From positions 1-39,828 of the forward strand of contig JANQIE010000212.1 of NCBI GenBank assembly GCA_028282295.1: 39,828 bases of DNA, given 5' to 3'. Position 1 is the first letter of the stretch; every line of letters starts with the position of its first letter. This document shows positions 16,363 to 39,828 of this stretch, one piece after another. The position numbers and the translations under genes were made by a program. The notes beneath the pieces were generated by a model, which ran no database searches, was not told the origin of the DNA, and saw only the letters and a program-made list of their open reading frames with translations. The DNA comes from Desulfobacterales bacterium (GTDB lineage Bacteria > Desulfobacterota > Desulfobacteria > Desulfobacterales > JANQIE01).

Positions 16363-16396
16363 TCCATCCGGAAACGGCAGATTTCCGAATGGGCAC
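16363..16396. repeat. Minimal copy of the dispersed GTGCCC-TCCGGAAA element
   Basis: Both ends of the element described at 28728-28872 are present here almost back to back: CATCCGGAAA at 16365-16374 and TTTCCGAATGGGCAC at 16382-16396, with only seven bases between. It looks like a deletion derivative that lost the core. It starts four bases after the MORN gene stop codon, read on the minus strand. Confidence 0.6.
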
Positions 16397-17857: not shown

Positions 17858-17878
17858 GTGTCCATCCGGAAATAGCCT
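17858..17878. repeat. Partial copy of the dispersed element, in the hdrCB upstream region
   Basis: GTGTCCATCCGGAAATAGCC matches the terminal sequence of the element at 28728-28872 and 39733-39828. A weak counterpart, GGCTATGTTT then CGTGCCC (17908-17934), may be a decayed second end. The whole stretch 17648-18048 shows no convincing gene; it must hold the promoters of the DUF3313 gene and of hdrCB, which I could not place. Confidence 0.5.
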
Positions 17879-27578: not shown

Positions 27579-28727
27579 ATGCCTGCTTCAGTCCAGCCTG
27601 AATATTCATATATCGATACCAGGGCCAAACTGCAGGCAGCTATGAAGCACCTGCAAGCGGCCCAAATCCTCGCTCTCGATATTGAAGCCGATTCCATGTT
27701 CCATTTTAAGGAGCGGGTCTGTTTGATCCAGATTGCAGCCAATGAGTCGGTCTTTTTAATCGATCCGCTTGTGATCGAGGACCTGAGACCATTGAAGAAG
27801 CTGCTGAAAAACCGGTCGGTGCCGAAGGTGCTGCATGGCGCCGATTATGATGTCCGGTCTTTGTTTCGCGATTTTAAAATCGTCCTGCCCGGCCTTTTCG
27901 ACACACAAATCGCCTGCCGTTTCCTCGGAATCACCGAAACCGGATTGGATGCGGTGTTAAATGCACGGTTCAATCTGAAACTGGATAAACGCTTCCAAAA
28001 AAAAAATTGGTCGCAACGCCCCTTGCCACCTGAGATGCTCGCCTATGCCGCTTCTGATGTGGCCTTTCTGATCCCACTTTATGGCCAACTGGAAGCTGAG
28101 CTGCAAACCAAAGAACGCCTGACGTGGGTGCTGGAAGAGTGCCGACGCCTGAGCAAGGTGCGCCCCCCGGTGGAAGACGATTGCCCGCTGTTCATCGGTT
28201 TTAAAGGCGCCGGCCGTTTGCGGCGCCGCAATTTGGCGGTTTTGGAAGCACTGTTGCAGTATCGGCGCAAAATAGCGCAAAAAAAAGACCGCCCGCTTTT
28301 CAAGGTGTTCAGTAACAAAGGGCTGATGACTCTGGCCGCGCACCCGCCTAAAACGCTACAGGAGTTGGACATGTCGGCCACCCTGAGCAAACGGCAAATC
28401 TCAATGTATGGCACCGAATTAATTCGAACGATCAAGGAGGCGATGCGGATCCCGCCGGCCGAGTTGCCGGTTTACCCTCGCCAAAAGCCGTCGCCCCCCG
28501 ACCCTCGGCTGCCTAGACGTATCAAGGCGCTAAAAGCCTGGCGCGACGGTATGGCCGAAAAGCTATCCATCGATCCGGCTTTGATCGCCAATAAAAACGC
28601 GTTGACCGCGATAGCCGGTCACATGCCAAATCGCATCAAGGACCTGCGCGCCGTCGATTGCATGCAAAACTGGCAAATCAAAGCGTTCGGCAGGGAGATT
28701 ATTGCCGCGTTGGATCAGGTTCGATAG
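27579..28727 (+). CDS. rnd: Ribonuclease D
   Basis: A 3'-5' exoribonuclease of the DEDDy family that trims tRNA and other stable RNA precursors. The 382-residue protein has the exonuclease domain in residues 1-195 with all motifs: D34 and E36 (LDIEAD), D91 (HGADYDV), and Y156-D160 (YAASD). One or two HRDC domains follow (about 212-290 and 310-380), which bind RNA. Length matches the family. The ATG at 27579 has only AAGAAA upstream. A short frame beginning at ATG 27563, better placed behind AGGGAAAAG, overlaps it and ends at 27601. Confidence 0.93.
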   Translation: MPASVQPEYSYIDTRAKLQAAMKHLQAAQILALDIEADSMFHFKERVCLIQIAANESVFLIDPLVIEDLRPLKKLLKNRSVPKVLHGADYDVRSLFRDFKIVLPGLFDTQIACRFLGITETGLDAVLNARFNLKLDKRFQKKNWSQRPLPPEMLAYAASDVAFLIPLYGQLEAELQTKERLTWVLEECRRLSKVRPPVEDDCPLFIGFKGAGRLRRRNLAVLEALLQYRRKIAQKKDRPLFKVFSNKGLMTLAAHPPKTLQELDMSATLSKRQISMYGTELIRTIKEAMRIPPAELPVYPRQKPSPPDPRLPRRIKALKAWRDGMAEKLSIDPALIANKNALTAIAGHMPNRIKDLRAVDCMQNWQIKAFGREIIAALDQVR

Positions 28728-28872
28728 GGCCTCATCCGGAAATTGTAGCTTTTGGTTCCTGGCAAGGCCCGAATATTTTTGAAACCGCAGGCATAGCGCG
28801 CTATTCCGAGGATTTCAAAAATGTGAGAACGCCGCCGGGGACCCAAAGAAGCTATTTCCGGACGGGCACAAG
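28728..28872 (-). repeat. Dispersed palindromic element, full copy
   Basis: An element of about 145 bp fills the gap between the rnd stop codon and the rhomboid stop codon exactly. Its ends are imperfect inverted repeats: GTGCCCGTCCGGAAATAGC read from 28869 on the minus strand, and GGCCTCATCCGGAAATT from 28728 on the plus strand. Inner inverted parts and a central palindrome, ATAGCGCGCTAT, make the whole unit foldable. The partial copy at 39733-39828 matches it closely over about 95 bp. There is no coding capacity, so it is MITE-like or REP-like. I cannot see a target-site duplication. Confidence 0.8.
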
Positions 28873-29607
28873 TTAATGAATCGTCGGCTTATCTTTATCC
28901 CCTTTCTTTCCTTTAACCACGGTAAAGCGTGATCGGCGCTTCTTCTGCTTGAACTGAAAAAATTTCCAATACCACCAATTATAATCGAGCCATTGGGTCG
29001 GCCCCCGGAAATAAAGGTAACCGAACAAGATTCCCCCTAGATGATAGGCGCCAAAAACATTGACCGTAGCCAAAAAGGTCAAGGTGGTCACGATAATCGT
29101 GCCGTAACTGATAAATTTGGCCTTGATCGGCAGGATAAACATGAACAGCACGGTCGACTCGGGGTGCATAAACCCAAAGGTCACAATGAGCGCCAGCAGG
29201 CTGGGGCTCATTCCCGCAAAGGGCGCGTGCAGGAAGGGCAACCCGCTGAATGCAAATCCGATCAGTGCCCCGCCCACCGCGGCACTGACGTAAAGAATAA
29301 GGAACCGGCGGGTGCCCAGGGCGTTTTCAATAGTACCGGCAAAAAAATAAAACACCAGGCATTGAAGCAGAAAATTGATGGGGGCGCCCGGATTATGCAA
29401 AAAGGGATGCGTAAAGAACTGCCACAGATGAAATTGATTGCTGCCCAGCGGGCTCAGGGCCAGCAAGCGGTAAATGGGCACTCCCACCCAGTGCTCTAAA
29501 ATTAATTCCAGCACATACACTACCGCGTACATGATGAGCATTTTTTTGCCTAAATCGGTTAAGGATGTTCCAAACTGAAACGAACCGTATCCACGTTGCG
29601 CAAACAT
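28873..29607 (-). CDS. Rhomboid-family membrane protein, altered active-site motif
   Basis: A 244-residue membrane protein with about six membrane segments and a basic, lysine-rich C-terminal tail. The rhomboid fold shows as FTHPFLHNP near 65-73, a helix with FLLQCLVFYFFAGTIENALG near 79-98, the catalytic-serine region AGMS134PS, and the catalytic-histidine region AYH189LGG. Rhomboids are intramembrane serine proteases. The usual GxSG is here G-M-S-P, so Ser134 and His189 remain but the following glycine is replaced by proline. It may be an active variant or a pseudoprotease. AGGAGA precedes the ATG at 29607. Confidence 0.85.
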   Translation of the reverse strand: MFAQRGYGSFQFGTSLTDLGKKMLIMYAVVYVLELILEHWVGVPIYRLLALSPLGSNQFHLWQFFTHPFLHNPGAPINFLLQCLVFYFFAGTIENALGTRRFLILYVSAAVGGALIGFAFSGLPFLHAPFAGMSPSLLALIVTFGFMHPESTVLFMFILPIKAKFISYGTIIVTTLTFLATVNVFGAYHLGGILFGYLYFRGPTQWLDYNWWYWKFFQFKQKKRRSRFTVVKGKKGDKDKPTIH

Positions 29608-29752: not shown

Positions 29753-29944
29753 TTAGTCTGAATCGTGATGGTAACATAATAACGGCAATCTTGTATTTTT
29801 AACCGCATATGATTCTGAAAGCAAGGAGTTCGCGTATTTTCGAACGGTTTCGTCTTCGATTAATAAAAGTATGTAACGGTCGTCCATTTCCGGATGGACA
29901 CCGGCCAAAAAATGTTCGATACTGTGAAACGCGGCGTCATTCAC
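29753..29944 (-). CDS. Possible small protein, 63 residues, divergent from the hydrolase
   Basis: A short frame beginning with GTG at 29944 and preceded by AAGAG. The product has no cysteine-rich or membrane features except a hydrophobic RYILLLIEDE patch, and a charged centre. It is not recognised. It contains the GTGTCCATCCGGAAA sequence of the dispersed element in its reading frame (GVHPEM), so that match may be coincidence or domestication. The remaining part of 29608-29954 shows no gene. Confidence 0.3.
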   Translation of the reverse strand: MNDAAFHSIEHFLAGVHPEMDDRYILLLIEDETVRKYANSLLSESYAVKNTRLPLLCYHHDSD

Positions 29945-30732: not shown

Positions 30733-32916
30733 ATGCGCCCCAAAATATTTAGTTTCGATTTTTTGATATCCGCGTTCAAAAAACCTCCCGTCATCGACAG
30801 CCCTGCCGACAATCTTGACGCCATGCGCCGCCAGTTGTTGAATTTCGCGCTATCCCTCGGATTGCCCGGTGTCTGCATATTCGCGACAGCAACAGTTCTG
30901 CGGGAAGATGGATTGTTGAGTGTGTTCAACATTCTTTTAGTAATTGTGGTGGCAATCTCCTATTTCATGCTCCCGCGGGTCAAACACGCCGTCATTATTT
31001 TCAGATTTTTTTTGTTTCCGATTTATCTGCTCTACCTGTATGAATTGTCGCTGGGCGGAGCGTATGGCGCCATGATTCATTGGGCCTACATCCTGCCTTT
31101 GTTAACATTTTTTCTTTTAGGTAAAAACGAAGGGGCATATTGGGCGGGGGTCGAATTCGTAGCGGTTCAACTGCTACTATGGGTCGAGCAACCTTTTTTT
31201 GAAGTTTACCCCTATCCTGTTCAAATCAAGGCGCGCTTCACAGCGGCCTACTTCGCCGTTATCTGGCTGGCCTATGTTTTCGAAAAATCACGCCATCGCT
31301 TCCAGCATTGGCTTGAAGAGGAAAGAGACAAACTGGCCGCCGCGGGTATTGAAAAAGAAAAAGCCAATAGCGCCCTGGCCGAATCGAATATCAATTTGCA
31401 CCGGGCCAAAGAACAGGCTGAGATTGCCAATCAGGCTAAAAGTGAATTTCTGGCCAACATGAGTCATGAAATCCGCACGCCGATGAACGCTATTCTCGGT
31501 TACGCCGATTTGTTGTATTCGGATCTGAAAGATGAGCAGTACCAGCATTATGTCCATATCATCAGAACCAGCGGTTCGAACCTGCTGCGGTTGATAAACG
31601 ATATCCTGGACTTGTCCAAAATCGAGGCCGGCCGCATGGAAATTAACCGGACCCCGATCGATATACGTTCGCTATTTAAAGAAATTCAGAATATTTTCTC
31701 GATCACGACGGCTCAAAAGGAAATCGGCCTTAAAATAAATCTGGCCGAACGGATCCCGGAATATTTAATGATGGACGAGGCGCGCTTTCGCCAGGTGTTG
31801 TTCAATTTAATCGGCAATGCCGTCAAGTTTACCGAAAAGGGTGGTGTCGATGTCATCGTCGATGTCGTCGCCACAAACAATCCGCAAACATGGACCCTGC
31901 AAATCGATGTAAATGACACGGGCATCGGCATTGATCCCAAGTTGCAAAGCAAAATTTTTCAAAGTTTCTGCCACGACACCTCGTTATCGGAAAAAAACAT
32001 CGAAGGCACCGGTCTGGGGCTGGCGATATCGAAAAATCTGGTGGAAATGATGGATGGTCAGATTACCGTACAAAGCGAGGCGGGCAAAGGCAGCCAATTT
32101 AAGCTGGTTTTTAACAATGTGGCCGAAGCGAAACACTCCGAAGCAATGGCCACCGCATCCAACGAACAGTCACCTGATCAAATCATTTTTCAGGAAGCAA
32201 CTATTTTACTGGCGGACGACCTGGAAATTAACCGCGAATTGGTGCGCAACTACTTAAACTCAGCACCGCTGTCGATCCTGGAAGCCGCAGACGGCCGCGC
32301 CGCGGTCAAAATGGCCACCGAATACCGGCCGGATATCATCCTGCTCGATATCAGAATGCCTGAATTTGACGGTTACGAGGCCATCCACAGGATCCGCGCA
32401 AACAGTCTGGCACCGGATGTGCCTATCATCGCGGTGACCGCGTCGGGAACATCAAAGGATATCGACAAAATAAAAACAGCCGGATTCGACGACCATCTTA
32501 TCCGGCCGTTTAGCCGGGTGGATTTGTTTCAACTGCTCGCCCGGTATTTACCCCACGAAAACACGGATGAACAGCAGGCGCACAAACCGGTCGATGAGAT
32601 GGCCGCCATTATGTCCACCGCCAAACTCGACGACCTGACCCGCTTCCCGAACGTTGTCGAGACGCTGAACAACGATCTTATCATCAAATGGGAGTCTATC
32701 AACAAACGGCAGAACCTGCCGAGAATCGAAGCCTTCGCCAAAAAGAACCAATCCATAGGCCAGCAGTACAATCTCAAATCCCTTTCCAATTATGGCCTTT
32801 TGTTGCAAAAACATACTGAAAATTGCAACATCAGCGGCATCATCGCCACCATGGCCAAGTATCCGAACCTGATCGATAATATCTGCCAATTCCAGCAAAA
32901 CAATGGGGCGCAATAG
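30733..32916 (+). CDS. Membrane hybrid histidine kinase with receiver and novel C-terminal domain
   Basis: A 727-residue hybrid sensor kinase. Residues 33-185 hold about six membrane segments and no large external domain, so the signal is probably membrane-borne or intramembrane. A coiled coil (about 188-235) leads to HisKA with H245 in MSHEIRTP, then HATPase_c (about 350-470; N box [16 protein letters not shown] and GTGLGLA). A receiver domain follows (about 490-610) with phosphoacceptor D539 in [11 protein letters not shown] and LIRPF with the usual charged switch. Residues 640-727 form a helical domain shared with the kinase at 35481-38618. The start at 30733 lacks a strong ribosome binding site. 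There is no response regulator beside it. Confidence 0.92.
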
Positions 32917-35480: not shown

Positions 35481-38400
35481 TCAGGGTTCACCGGGTGGCG
35501 GCAGTATTTGCTCCACCATGGCCGGGAAGCGATCCAGCATGGCTTTAATGCCGTCGATTTCAAAGCGTTGGACATACAGCGACAAGGTCTGACCGTACTC
35601 TTGCAGCATCGTCAAGTCATGTTGTTTGGCGATCCCCCGAACACCCTCGGCAAAATCCTCAATATCGGGAATGCGCTGTTTGCGACGCGCTTTTTCCCAT
35701 TTCACATTCAACGTCGTCTTCAGTACTTCAGCGACCTCGGGTGGGCATTGCCAAACGGCGGCCACCGCCTGTGCATCGCCTTTCGCTTCATCCGCACCGG
35801 CCGGATCGGTTTTGGGCGCTTCATGCTCATAGGGTAGATGACGTGTTAAAATCTTCAGCAACTCGAATTTATTGAACGGCCGGATGAGATAGCCGTCAAA
35901 GCCCGCTTTCAAAATTTTGGAAATATCCTCCTTCATACCGGCCGCCGTGATTGCCACGGCCGGAATGGCCTTAAGATCCTCATTGGCACGTATACGGGCG
36001 ATGGCACCATAACCGTCAAGTTCAGGCATTTTGATATCCATTAGGATAAGATCAGGCTTGTGTTTACGGGCCGCCTCAATGGCGGCGAGACCGTTCTCGG
36101 CCTCCAAAATTTTGATATCGGTGGCATCCAAGTATGTTCGAATCAAATCGCGATTGACTTCCAGGTCGTCCGCGACCAACACCCTGGCCGGATTGAAGAC
36201 AATGGTGTCCGGATCAAAATCGACGTATTCGAGCAGCGGCTGCAATGTCTTGGCATTTTTCGCTTCGGCAACATTGCGCAAGACGATTCTAAACACGCTG
36301 CCCTGGCCCACGCGACTGCGCAGACTGATTCGTCCCCCCATCATTTCGATCAGGTTTCTGGAAATGGCCAGTCCCAGGCCGGTCCCTTCGACCCTGCGGG
36401 TATTTGAAGCGGCGTGCTGCCGAAATGTTTCAAATATAACGTCATGCAATTTCGGGTCGATCCCCACACCGGTGTCCCTGACATCGATGGAAAGATCCCA
36501 GTGCTTCACTCGCCGCCCCGGCACCGCGGCCGCCGTGATTTTGATGTAGCCTTCATTGGTGAATTTCACGGCGTTGCCGATCAGATTAAACAACACCTGG
36601 CGCAATCGGGCCTCATCCAGTAACAAGATGCCGGGTATATCGGGGGAGACGTTCAGCAGCATTTGGATGTTCTTTTCGGCAATGCTTATCGAAAAGATCC
36701 GTTTTACTTCGCTTAACAAGGTTGGAATGCTGACCGGGGTGTTGTGGATCTCCATGCGGCCGGCTTCAATTTTGGACAAATCGAGAATATCGTTGATCAA
36801 CTGGAGTAAAGACGCGCCGCTGGATTTAATGGTTTGCGCATAATGCTTTTGTTGCGGGTCCGCAATCAATGCTTCAAGAATGTCGGCAAAACCGAGAATG
36901 GCGTTCATCGGTGTACGGATTTCATGACTCATATGGGCCAAAAATTCACTTTTGGCTTGATTGGCGGCTTCGGCCGCCTCGCGTTCCTTTTCAACCTGTT
37001 CTTTGGCGCGCCGACCGGTGATATCGATAAAAAAGCCCTCGAAATACTGCAATTGCCGGTCTTCGTTGTATACAGCGCGGACCGACAGAGAAACCCAAAT
37101 GATACTGTTGTCCTTGCGATAAATGCGCGTTTCAAAGCCGACCACCTGGCTTTGGTCGCTCAGACGACGACTCAGTTGTTTATAATCTTCAACATCGACG
37201 AAGATTTGCCGGGCGATATCGGTAATCTGCGTTTTCACTTCGTCGATGGATGCATATCCGAGCATCTCTACCAGGGCCGGATTCACCGAAATAAAACGTC
37301 CTGGATGAACCGTGCTTCGAAAAATGGCTTCAAGGGCGTTTTCGTATAGTGAGCGGTAATTTCGCTCGGATTTTTCCAATTGCGTCTTGGATTGGTGCAA
37401 GGCTTCAATGTACTGATCGATTTCATCGTTGCGCTTGTGTAAAATGGCAGTCATCTGATTAAATGACGCGGCCAGCGTGCCGATTTCATCCTTTGTTTTT
37501 ACCTGGACACGCTGGTCAAACCGTTTTTCGGTGGCGATCATGTGCATCTGCTGGGTAATGTCGGCCAGCGGCTGGGCGATCTTGCGCGTCAGGATAATGG
37601 TGATCGCCGTGGCGACGACCAGCCCGATCAGTAAACCCAGGCAGTAAAGATAGATAACCCGGCGCGCATTGGCGCGTAGCGGCTCCTTGGACACATAGGC
37701 AAACAAATACGCCACAATATCGGTCCGGTAGTAATACGGCGTCGTCATCATGTAATATTGTATGGCATCCGCCTTGACCGAAGACAACCGCTCGTCTTTT
37801 CGGGGCAGGTTAAGCGGATCGATATGGGTTTTATCAATATCCGGATGACTAGCGGTCAGCCAGAGCCCCTGGGCCGAACACAACGCCACACGGCTGCGTG
37901 CAAATTCAGCGAATTGCCGCAGCCGTGCCGCGGTGATATATTTTTCCAAAACAATCGCGGCTACCGGCGCGGTTTCGTATATATTGCGCGTTCGATCGAA
38001 TAGTGTCGCCTCGATAATTCCTTTGGCTTCGATGACAAAACGATTTTCACCAAAAAGAAAACGCACCTGGGCGGACTGCTGAAACACGTCGCTTACCGGC
38101 GTAAGCTTGCGTGGCTCCGTCGGCTGCCACAATTCGGTAGAAAACCGGATGCGTGCAGAAGGGCTGGCAGGAATATGGTGGACCGGCCGGCCCTGCTCAT
38201 CCGGGGTCACCACGACGATTCTTTGATGGCTGGCGTAGCCGTACAATTCGTCCGGGCCGTAGAGGGCCACAAAATCGTAGTCTTTATGGATAATCTTGGT
38301 TTGAAGCTGCTGAAGGATTTTGCTTTGCAGACTTCTTTTAAGGTCCCGGGTTTCCGGTTCGACCGATTCAAACAACACCTTGGCGTCTTCAGCCATACCG

Positions 38401-38618
38401 GCGGCGATATCTTCGGCCGCCAAAGTCTGTTTCAAATCCTCGACGATTCGGTCCAGCGTGGTTTTAAGTTGGGCATTGGCAATTCGCAGACTGGTTTGGG
38501 CGCTTTTTTTATTCTGGTCGGCAGTTATCCACAGCAGCGTAATCGTAACAAAGGTTGTTGCGAGCAGCAGCGGGATAATCGCTTCAAATAGCAGTTTGTC
38601 CCGAAGAGATAAGTACAT
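35481..38618 (-). CDS. Hybrid histidine kinase with Cache sensor, HAMP, PAS and receiver domains
   Basis: A 1045-residue sensor. Membrane segments at about residues 12-32 and 324-347 enclose a large periplasmic domain with a Cache-like pattern. HAMP (about 345-400), a PAS domain with its PAC-like end (about 425-545), HisKA with H565 in MSHEIRTP, HATPase_c (about 660-785) and a receiver with D861 in LMDIKMPELDG follow. The last 100 residues form the helical domain shared with the kinase at 30733-32916. The gene lies downstream of a periplasmic binding-protein gene on the same strand (39 bp gap), so the binding protein may present its ligand to the Cache domain. The output partner is not adjacent. 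Confidence 0.93.
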   Translation of the reverse strand: MYLSLRDKLLFEAIIPLLLATTFVTITLLWITADQNKKSAQTSLRIANAQLKTTLDRIVEDLKQTLAAEDIAAGMAEDAKVLFESVEPETRDLKRSLQSKILQQLQTKIIHKDYDFVALYGPDELYGYASHQRIVVVTPDEQGRPVHHIPASPSARIRFSTELWQPTEPRKLTPVSDVFQQSAQVRFLFGENRFVIEAKGIIEATLFDRTRNIYETAPVAAIVLEKYITAARLRQFAEFARSRVALCSAQGLWLTASHPDIDKTHIDPLNLPRKDERLSSVKADAIQYYMMTTPYYYRTDIVAYLFAYVSKEPLRANARRVIYLYCLGLLIGLVVATAITIILTRKIAQPLADITQQMHMIATEKRFDQRVQVKTKDEIGTLAASFNQMTAILHKRNDEIDQYIEALHQSKTQLEKSERNYRSLYENALEAIFRSTVHPGRFISVNPALVEMLGYASIDEVKTQITDIARQIFVDVEDYKQLSRRLSDQSQVVGFETRIYRKDNSIIWVSLSVRAVYNEDRQLQYFEGFFIDITGRRAKEQVEKEREAAEAANQAKSEFLAHMSHEIRTPMNAILGFADILEALIADPQQKHYAQTIKSSGASLLQLINDILDLSKIEAGRMEIHNTPVSIPTLLSEVKRIFSISIAEKNIQMLLNVSPDIPGILLLDEARLRQVLFNLIGNAVKFTNEGYIKITAAAVPGRRVKHWDLSIDVRDTGVGIDPKLHDVIFETFRQHAASNTRRVEGTGLGLAISRNLIEMMGGRISLRSRVGQGSVFRIVLRNVAEAKNAKTLQPLLEYVDFDPDTIVFNPARVLVADDLEVNRDLIRTYLDATDIKILEAENGLAAIEAARKHKPDLILMDIKMPELDGYGAIARIRANEDLKAIPAVAITAAGMKEDISKILKAGFDGYLIRPFNKFELLKILTRHLPYEHEAPKTDPAGADEAKGDAQAVAAVWQCPPEVAEVLKTTLNVKWEKARRKQRIPDIEDFAEGVRGIAKQHDLTMLQEYGQTLSLYVQRFEIDGIKAMLDRFPAMVEQILPPPGEP

Positions 38619-38638: not shown

Positions 38639-38668
38639 GTGTCCACCCGGAAAAAGACTATTTCCAGC
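38639..38668. repeat. Partial dispersed element between binding protein and kinase
   Basis: GTGTCCACCCGGAAA (38639-38653) followed by CTATTTCCAG matches the ends of the dispersed element in reduced form. It overlaps the last codons of the binding-protein gene; its stop codon lies in CTATTTCCA. The similarity is short and could be partly chance. Confidence 0.4.
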
Positions 38669-39620
38669 GTCTATATTCCAGTGACAGGGCTTCAATTTGT
38701 TCAACATTGTGACGGTTCACCACGCCCAGGCCGGTATCCAGATTCGAAGGCACCAATTTGTGCTGATTTGCCAGCACCAGCATTTTAATAGACATAAAAC
38801 CTTGCAGATAGGGTTGTTGGTCAATGGTAAAGCCAACAAAGCCACTGCGGATATAGTTCAACGTCCGGTGCGACAGGTCAAAGCTGCCGATATACAAAGG
38901 ATGCTTCTTCGACTCAATAAATTGGCCGATCGGGTGCAATACCGATGGCCCCAGGCAAAAAACCGCCGTTAGGTCTTTATGGGTTTGATAAAATTTTTCA
39001 AATACCTTTTTGATTGTCCGCTCATTATTGGTGGTATCGAGTTTGACGACTTTGACACCCATCGGCGTCAAAACATCCATGATACCTTTGGTGCGCGCTT
39101 CCAATCCGACGTGGCCCGGTTGATGGTTCAAAACCACCGCGAAATTACCGAGTTGTCCGGACTTCAGGGCACAACGGCCGGCCAATTTCCCGGCCGCGTA
39201 ATCGTCGGTGCCAATGTAGGCCAGATAGGGGTTTTTCACGCGATCACCATCCAGCGGCCGGGCATTGAACGCCACTACCGGTATACCTAAAATTCGCGCC
39301 CGTTGCAAAGCGCGGGAAAACACGCCGGCATCGCTCAAGGTAACCGCTATACCAGCCGGTCGCGCCTTTAGCGCCGATTGCAGCAGTTCAAGCTGGCGCG
39401 TGATATCGTTGGGTGTTTCCGGAGCCAGGATGCGCAAAGGAACGCCGAACTCCCTGGCCGCGTCGTAGGCGCCTTTGAACTCGATTTTCCAGAAAGGGTC
39501 CGCCGCACCGGCATGCGAAACCATGAAATAGCGTTGTCCGGCATAAAGGATTGTACCGCCACCGAGCCCTAAAATCAGAATCAATCCGGCGGCCAGCAAT
39601 AGTTTGGTCTGTCGTTTCAT
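38658..39620 (-). CDS. Periplasmic sugar-binding-type protein, likely kinase partner
   Basis: A 320-residue protein of the periplasmic binding protein type used by ribose, galactose and AI-2 systems (Peripla_BP_4-like). An N-terminal hydrophobic segment (about residues 6-28) acts as a signal peptide or anchor. The two-lobed fold shows as FMVSHAGAADPFW near residue 32-44, ITRQLELLQSALKARPAGIAVTLSD near 70-95, GIPVVAFNARP near 111, and YIGTDDYAAGKLAG near 132-145. No ABC permease or ATPase genes follow; a hybrid kinase does, so signal presentation rather than transport is likely. The start is uncertain: ATG 39620 has no clear ribosome binding site, and a GTG at 39662 would add a short N-terminal extension. 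Confidence 0.85.
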   Translation of the reverse strand: MKRQTKLLLAAGLILILGLGGGTILYAGQRYFMVSHAGAADPFWKIEFKGAYDAAREFGVPLRILAPETPNDITRQLELLQSALKARPAGIAVTLSDAGVFSRALQRARILGIPVVAFNARPLDGDRVKNPYLAYIGTDDYAAGKLAGRCALKSGQLGNFAVVLNHQPGHVGLEARTKGIMDVLTPMGVKVVKLDTTNNERTIKKVFEKFYQTHKDLTAVFCLGPSVLHPIGQFIESKKHPLYIGSFDLSHRTLNYIRSGFVGFTIDQQPYLQGFMSIKMLVLANQHKLVPSNLDTGLGVVNRHNVEQIEALSLEYRRWK

Positions 39621-39732
39621 TTTTCTGTTTTTGACCAGATAATAAAGGAAAGCGGAGATCACGGCCCCTGAAATCAGTTGCCGGAATCGTTTACCGCGCT
39701 GATCCAGATTATAATCGGGTGGACATTAACTA

Positions 39733-39828
39733 GTGCCCATCCGGAAATAGCATCTTTTGGCCCCCGGCGGCGTTCTCGCATTTTTAAAATCCTCGACATA
39801 GCCCGCTATGCCTGCGATTTTAAAAATG
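39733..39828 (+). repeat. Dispersed palindromic element, cut by the window edge
   Basis: Starting with GTGCCCATCCGGAAATAGC, this stretch is close to the element at 28728-28872 read on the minus strand, and covers its first 95 or so bases, including the ATTTTTAAAAT(CC) and GCTATGCCTGCG parts of the core. Even the flanking CATTAACT is shared. The second end should lie just past 39828. Confidence 0.75.

What the first reader, a model, noticed from the sequence alone, without database searches (positions are those of the whole stretch)
28728..28872. MITE/REP-like palindromic element, several copies in 40 kb
The full 145-bp copy (28728-28872) and the edge copy (39733-39828) agree closely, including the flank CATTAACT. 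Partial ends occur at 16363, 17858 and 38639. No transposase is encoded, and the unit can fold almost end to end around ATAGCGCGCTAT. It may be a previously undescribed repeat family of this lineage.
Basis: seen in the sequence. Interest (0 to 1): 0.6.

Follow-up and report, generated by a model that had tools for sequence, protein, structure and literature searches.

The report
Non-autonomous ISNCY-type MITE, hundreds of copies
The palindrome is one of several hundred copies of a small jumping DNA element that encodes no enzyme and was most likely moved by an ISNCY-family transposase, which survives in related sulfate-reducer genomes but is only a 21-codon relic in this one.

Summary
The 145-bp unit (true ends 28727/28728-28869) belongs to a MITE family with at least 40 full copies found by similarity and 631 exact 15-bp ends against 0 control in this 5.46-Mb Desulfobacterales genome; an evenly chosen 522-kb sample gives about 730 elements genome-wide. 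Copies carry 32-bp imperfect TIRs (GTGYCCATCCGGAAATAG..), fold end to end (z -13), and are flanked by exactly 6-bp target duplications (36/89 exact; permuted mean 1.4; consensus TAGCTA), so it is a DDE-type MITE and not a REP. The same ends occur in 117/389 genomes of the order and elsewhere in the phylum. The partner was identified: 1.67-kb ISNCY insertion sequences (NF033593, E 6e-130) in relatives share the outer ends and the 6-bp TANNTA duplication. In genome G273 an identical IS+MITE composite sits at two sites with its own TSDs. This genome keeps only a transposase relic between two element ends. Both MITE arms resemble the IS 3' end only. Ordinary in kind; the family, partner, copy number and homotypic ends appear undescribed in the papers searched.

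The parts
28727..28869 (+). Full MITE copy (143-bp size class), left arm GTAGMTTTTGG type on + strand
   Evidence: Alignment with 46 other copies; ends read; DNA fold z -3.6, RNA fold z -6.6
28721..28726 (.). Left target flank TCGATA (decayed duplication, 3/6 match to right flank)
   Evidence: Sequence
28870..28875 (.). Right target flank AAGTTA
   Evidence: Sequence
39733..39828 (-). Second MITE copy, cut by the contig end
16363..16396 (.). 34-bp remnant: both terminal repeats with the interior deleted
17858..17877 (+). Single element end (remnant)
29887..29901 (-).
38639..38667 (+). Short remnant, two ends fused with mutations

Best explanation
[quoted passage not shown] It encodes nothing. 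A DDE transposase of the ISNCY family (NCBIfam transpos_ISNCY_1, 450-aa subgroup) binds its terminal repeats, mobilises it, and inserts it at a palindromic TA-rich 6-bp target (TAGCTA-like), which is duplicated. In this genome it multiplied to several hundred copies and the transposase gene then decayed to a relic, so the copies are now diverging in place. Shown: the repeats, the 6-bp duplications, dispersal, the matching insertion sequences in relatives, two copies of a joined IS-MITE unit in G273, and a transposase relic between element ends in this genome. Inferred: that the lost local transposase drove the burst, and the order of events.
For: At least 40 full copies and 631 exact ends vs 0 control. 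6-bp TSD exact in 36/89 pairs, 0 at 4, 5, 8-10 bp and 2 at 7 bp, permuted mean 1.4, max 7. ISNCY IS copies of 1.66-1.70 kb in G273, G324, G318, G289, G298, G069, G213, G021 begin and end GTGYYCRTCC or nearly so and carry 6-bp TANNTA duplications, mostly 6/6; family assignment E 5.7e-130, over the curated cut-off. An identical 1844-bp IS-TAATTA-MITE unit sits at two unrelated sites in G273 with TSDs CTTTTA/CTTTTA and TAGCTA/TAGTTA. G000 holds a 21-residue relic, 90% identical to an ISNCY transposase, inside a 445-bp stretch bounded by the MITE's own ends. Genomes with full-length transposase of this subgroup carry the ends in 15/18 cases vs 102/371 of the rest (Fisher p 2.6e-6; counts read by me; a few ends may be the IS's own). 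Both MITE arms score as IS 3' ends, +15 to +39 bits over the 5'-end profile, with the first 10 bp left out.
Against: No intact ISNCY gene in this genome, so movement here by this enzyme is inferred. IS and MITE share only about the outer 10-18 bp plus a T-rich block; MITE interiors are not recognisable IS sequence. No transposition was observed. The window copy has lost its own duplication.
Confidence: 0.9

Rival explanations
1. A REP/BIME-type palindrome spread by a RAYT (HUH, Y1) transposase.
For: Palindromic, intergenic, high copy number; solo and truncated ends are common.
Against: Exact 6-bp target duplications in 36/89 copies; REP insertion by HUH enzymes makes none (established knowledge). 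Ends match a DDE IS.
Confidence: 0.03
2. A selected RNA or terminator element (bidirectional terminator between convergent genes) rather than a mobile element.
For: The window copy lies exactly between the stops of convergent genes (28727 and 28873); consensus RNA fold -91.5 kcal/mol, z -13.
Against: Across 68 placeable intergenic elements 7 are convergent, 16 divergent, 45 co-directional, close to what intergenic space predicts (crude gene calls). No Rfam match and no terminator call at the element. TSDs and dispersal demand mobility. A secondary effect on transcription is not excluded.
Confidence: 0.04
3. The MITEs are moved by another, unidentified transposase that shares the outer 10-15 bp of ends with ISNCY elements.
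For: No intact ISNCY in G000 although it has the most copies; several MITE-rich genomes (G222, G321, G153) showed no full-length gene of this subgroup.
Against: Two copies of an ISNCY-MITE composite in G273; relic in G000; same target motif. Draft assemblies often lose multicopy IS.
Confidence: 0.07

Closest known systems
ISNCY family insertion sequences (NCBIfam NF033593; probably the ISDol1 group of ISfinder, from memory, not tested)
   Same: Ends GTGYCCATCC, 6-bp TANNTA target duplications
   Different: The MITE has no transposase and both its arms resemble the IS 3' end; IS 5' ends carry ATAACTA and a leader instead
Chunjie MITE of Geobacter uraniireducens
   Same: MITE with variable sizes and many truncated copies in another former deltaproteobacterium (PMC10969869)
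   Different: 235 bp, 38 conserved plus 57 partial copies; sequence not available here, so relation untested
ERIC/IRU
   Same: Hundreds of intergenic palindromic copies, up to 711 in Photorhabdus luminescens (PMC10969869)
   Different: Different host group and sequence; no ISNCY partner mentioned in the review
TIMEs (Tn3-derived inverted-repeat miniature elements)
   Same: Miniature elements that form mosaic mobile units with other DNA (PMC4133298, title and abstract only)
   Different: Tn3 family, not ISNCY

Membership tests
MITE | Short, non-coding, terminal inverted repeats | tested here: met
   142-143 and 164-165 bp classes, 32-bp imperfect TIR; no ORF of 120 aa or more within it
MITE | Target-site duplication of fixed length | tested here: met
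   6 bp, 36/89 exact, permuted mean 1.4
MITE | Dispersed high copy number with unrelated flanks | tested here: met
MITE of ISNCY (NF033593) | Same ends and TSD as an autonomous ISNCY element | tested here: met
   ends shared over the outer 10-18 bp
MITE of ISNCY (NF033593) | Mobilised by the ISNCY transposase | tested here: inconclusive
   Two copies of one IS-MITE composite with own TSDs in G273; no assay
MITE of ISNCY (NF033593) | Autonomous partner in the same genome | tested here: not met
   Only a 21-residue relic in G000; intact partner and MITEs coexist in G273
REP/BIME with RAYT | No target duplication; HUH transposase partner | tested here: not met
   Clear 6-bp duplications; RAYT gene not searched
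Rfam RNA family | Match above gathering score | tested here: not met

The most novel reading that the evidence does not exclude
The MITEs are built from two copies of the 3' end of an ISNCY element instead of being internal-deletion derivatives. This homotypic, fully palindromic substrate outcompeted the parent IS, amplified to several hundred copies in one genome and left the transposase to decay, while related MITE lineages persist across the phylum.
Probability: 0.35. Interest if true: 0.6.

Novelty: new member of a known kind. Interest (0 to 1): 0.45.

Why it matters
It assigns a partner transposase to a MITE family whose ends occur in about 30% of sampled Desulfobacterales genomes, in an IS family for which the papers found describe no such MITE. 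With an estimated 600-750 copies, G000 is near the highest count quoted for a prokaryotic MITE (711, ERIC), and the repeat probably explains much of the assembly's break-up into 326 contigs. G273, with identical IS copies and MITEs, offers a natural system to test whether a palindromic two-right-end substrate beats its parent IS.

Tried and rejected
1) Autonomous IS in G000 by pairing exact ends 1-3 kb apart: the one candidate, C50 7633-9165, holds two genes that look like KDO-8-P synthase and its phosphatase, not a transposase. 2) PF01609 in G000: one IS701 gene without these ends. 3) NF033594 (ISNCY_2): hits were other transposon types without these ends, but fetching one of those regions exposed the right IS by luck (L134). 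4) End pattern in IMG/VR: one match with no second end, taken as chance; MITE consensus in plasmid and phage collections: none. 5) Preference for convergent gene pairs: not supported. 6) Literature text search for the end sequence and for MITE with ISNCY or Desulfobacter: nothing relevant. 7) G031 L060: two genes between 46-bp inverted ends looked like a mobile cassette, but flanks show no duplication.

Full report
What was checked. The full copy, the edge copy and the three partial ends are all present. The edge copy is cut because the window is the entire contig C143. The two copies match at about 87-88% over 95 bp. The shared 'CATTAACT' flank is explained by target preference. A further end at 29887-29901 was missed.

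Scale. Searching the genome (G000, 5.46 Mb, 326 contigs) with the 145-bp unit gave at least 40 near-full copies at 88-93% identity, the scored list being capped. The 15-bp end GTGYCCATCCGGAAA occurs 631 times, the reversed control 0 times. In a 522-kb sample (the window plus 40 contigs chosen by number) there were 70 elements: 23 with both ends and 47 single ends. That extrapolates to about 730 per genome; contig breaks inside elements inflate single ends, so I give 600-750. The sample's 57 exact ends agree with the 60 expected. For comparison, a 2024 review quotes 711 ERIC copies in Photorhabdus luminescens as a high prokaryotic count (PMC10969869).

Anatomy. Two size classes dominate: 142-143 bp and 164-165 bp. 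The consensus of the first is GTGCCCATCCGGAAATAGTAGATTTTGGTTCC...GGGGCCAAAAGATGCTATTTCCGGATGGGCAC, so the terminal repeats run about 32 bp with a few mismatches. It folds end to end (-91.5 kcal/mol as RNA, z -13.1; window copy z -6.6). Mean identity to consensus is 93% for the 143 class and 89% for the 165 class, so the bulk of the amplification does not look recent.

Transposition. Of 89 element pairs with flanks, 36 have an exact 6-bp direct repeat and 56 at most one mismatch. Lengths 4, 5, 8, 9 and 10 give 0 exact, 3 gives 1 and 7 gives 2. Permuting flanks gives mean 1.4 and maximum 7. The target consensus is TAGCTA, itself palindromic. This is the signature of a DDE transposase and argues against REP/RAYT spread. 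Most placeable elements are intergenic (about 10% inside called genes against roughly three quarters of the DNA), with no preference for convergent pairs (gene calls are my own simple ones). The window copy's neat fit between the rnd-like gene (TIGR01388 best hit) and a rhomboid gene is therefore probably incidental. One detail: if the element starts at 28727, its first G completes the TAG stop of the rnd-like gene.

Distribution. The 18-bp end, with at most one mismatch, is found in 117 of 389 sampled genomes of the same order; an exact degenerate form is found in 16 of 395 of the phylum, including genomes outside the order; G491 has 125 ends. The order is Desulfobacterales: the G021 locus L062 is contained letter for letter in L091, record 'Desulfobacteraceae bacterium CSMAG_1163'. 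Interior sequence is significantly alike, in the same orientation, between G000 and G037, G273, G519 and G491 (p 0.002-0.006 by shuffling), but not with G709 or G003. So at least two interior lineages share the ends, and one spans different orders.

The partner. By fetching a region of G273, I found a 1697-bp element with a 454-aa transposase whose ends read GTGTTCATCC and GTGTCCGTCC. NCBIfam assigns it to ISNCY, NF033593, E 5.7e-130, above the curated cut-off. G273 holds 12 full-length identical transposase copies. Comparable IS in G324, G318, G289, G298, G069, G213, G021 and others are 1.66-1.70 kb with 6-bp TANNTA duplications, mostly perfect. A second ISNCY branch with proteins of about 490 aa showed no such ends in the same scan.

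Link between IS and MITE. In G273 the IS and a 141-bp MITE sit side by side, joined by TAATTA. The identical 1844-bp pair occurs at two unrelated sites, once with perfect outer duplications (CTTTTA) and once 5/6. The simplest reading is that one transposase used the outer end of the IS and the outer end of the MITE together. In G000 the family search finds only a 22-position fragment on C91 at E 3.8e-5. It reads DETVPASEKIVSIFEPHTDII, 19/21 identical to the G298 transposase, and lies in a 445-bp stretch bounded by GTGTCCATCCGGAAATAG ends. So the transposase was very probably once here. Genomes with a full-length gene of this subgroup have the ends in 15 of 18 cases against 102 of 371 others (p 2.6e-6; tallied by me).

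Structure of the arms. Using only positions 11-32, every MITE arm tested, left and right, scores as an IS 3' end (+15 to +39 bits over the 5' profile). The IS's own 5' ends score -11 to -49, one exception at +5. The MITEs therefore look like two 3' ends in inverted order and not like an IS with its middle deleted. This is the least expected result and is descriptive; no functional claim follows without an assay.

Verdict. An ordinary kind of element (MITE) with a newly assigned and well supported partner, unusual copy number, wide distribution and homotypic ends. I found no description in the papers searched, though ISfinder itself was not available.

Noticed in passing
L060 1421-3096 (G031): Two genes (an ACT-domain-like protein and a 2-dehydropantoate 2-reductase) lie between inverted 46-bp element ends; could be a passenger cassette, but the flanks show no target duplication.
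   Followed up: partly
L132 and L133 (G123 C88, G222 C329): Operons of an rve-type transposase with an AAA ATPase, Tn7/Mu-like, in two MITE-rich genomes; no matching ends nearby.
   Followed up: partly
L095 461-675 and 4460-4635 (G709), L101 3230-3404 (G569): Elements with doubled ends: an outer GTGTCCATCCGGAAATGATTTC.. end about 36 bp outside an inner TTTCCAATCCGGAAATGAGG end, seen repeatedly in one family outside the order.
   Followed up: no
G000 contig starts, e.g. C4, C7, C17, C18, C28, C31, C34 within the first 140 bp: Many contigs begin inside an element, so this repeat probably caused much of the assembly fragmentation.
   Followed up: partly
L069 134-233, L070 1-103 and other 165-bp copies: The longer class carries an extra AATGGCTCCGCCATT hairpin next to the centre, also seen inserted in some 143-type copies (L032, L036).
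   Followed up: no
window 30733-32916 and 35481-38618: Two large hybrid histidine kinases with TorS-like architecture; a rhizopine-type substrate-binding protein gene lies next to the second (38658-39662).
   Followed up: no
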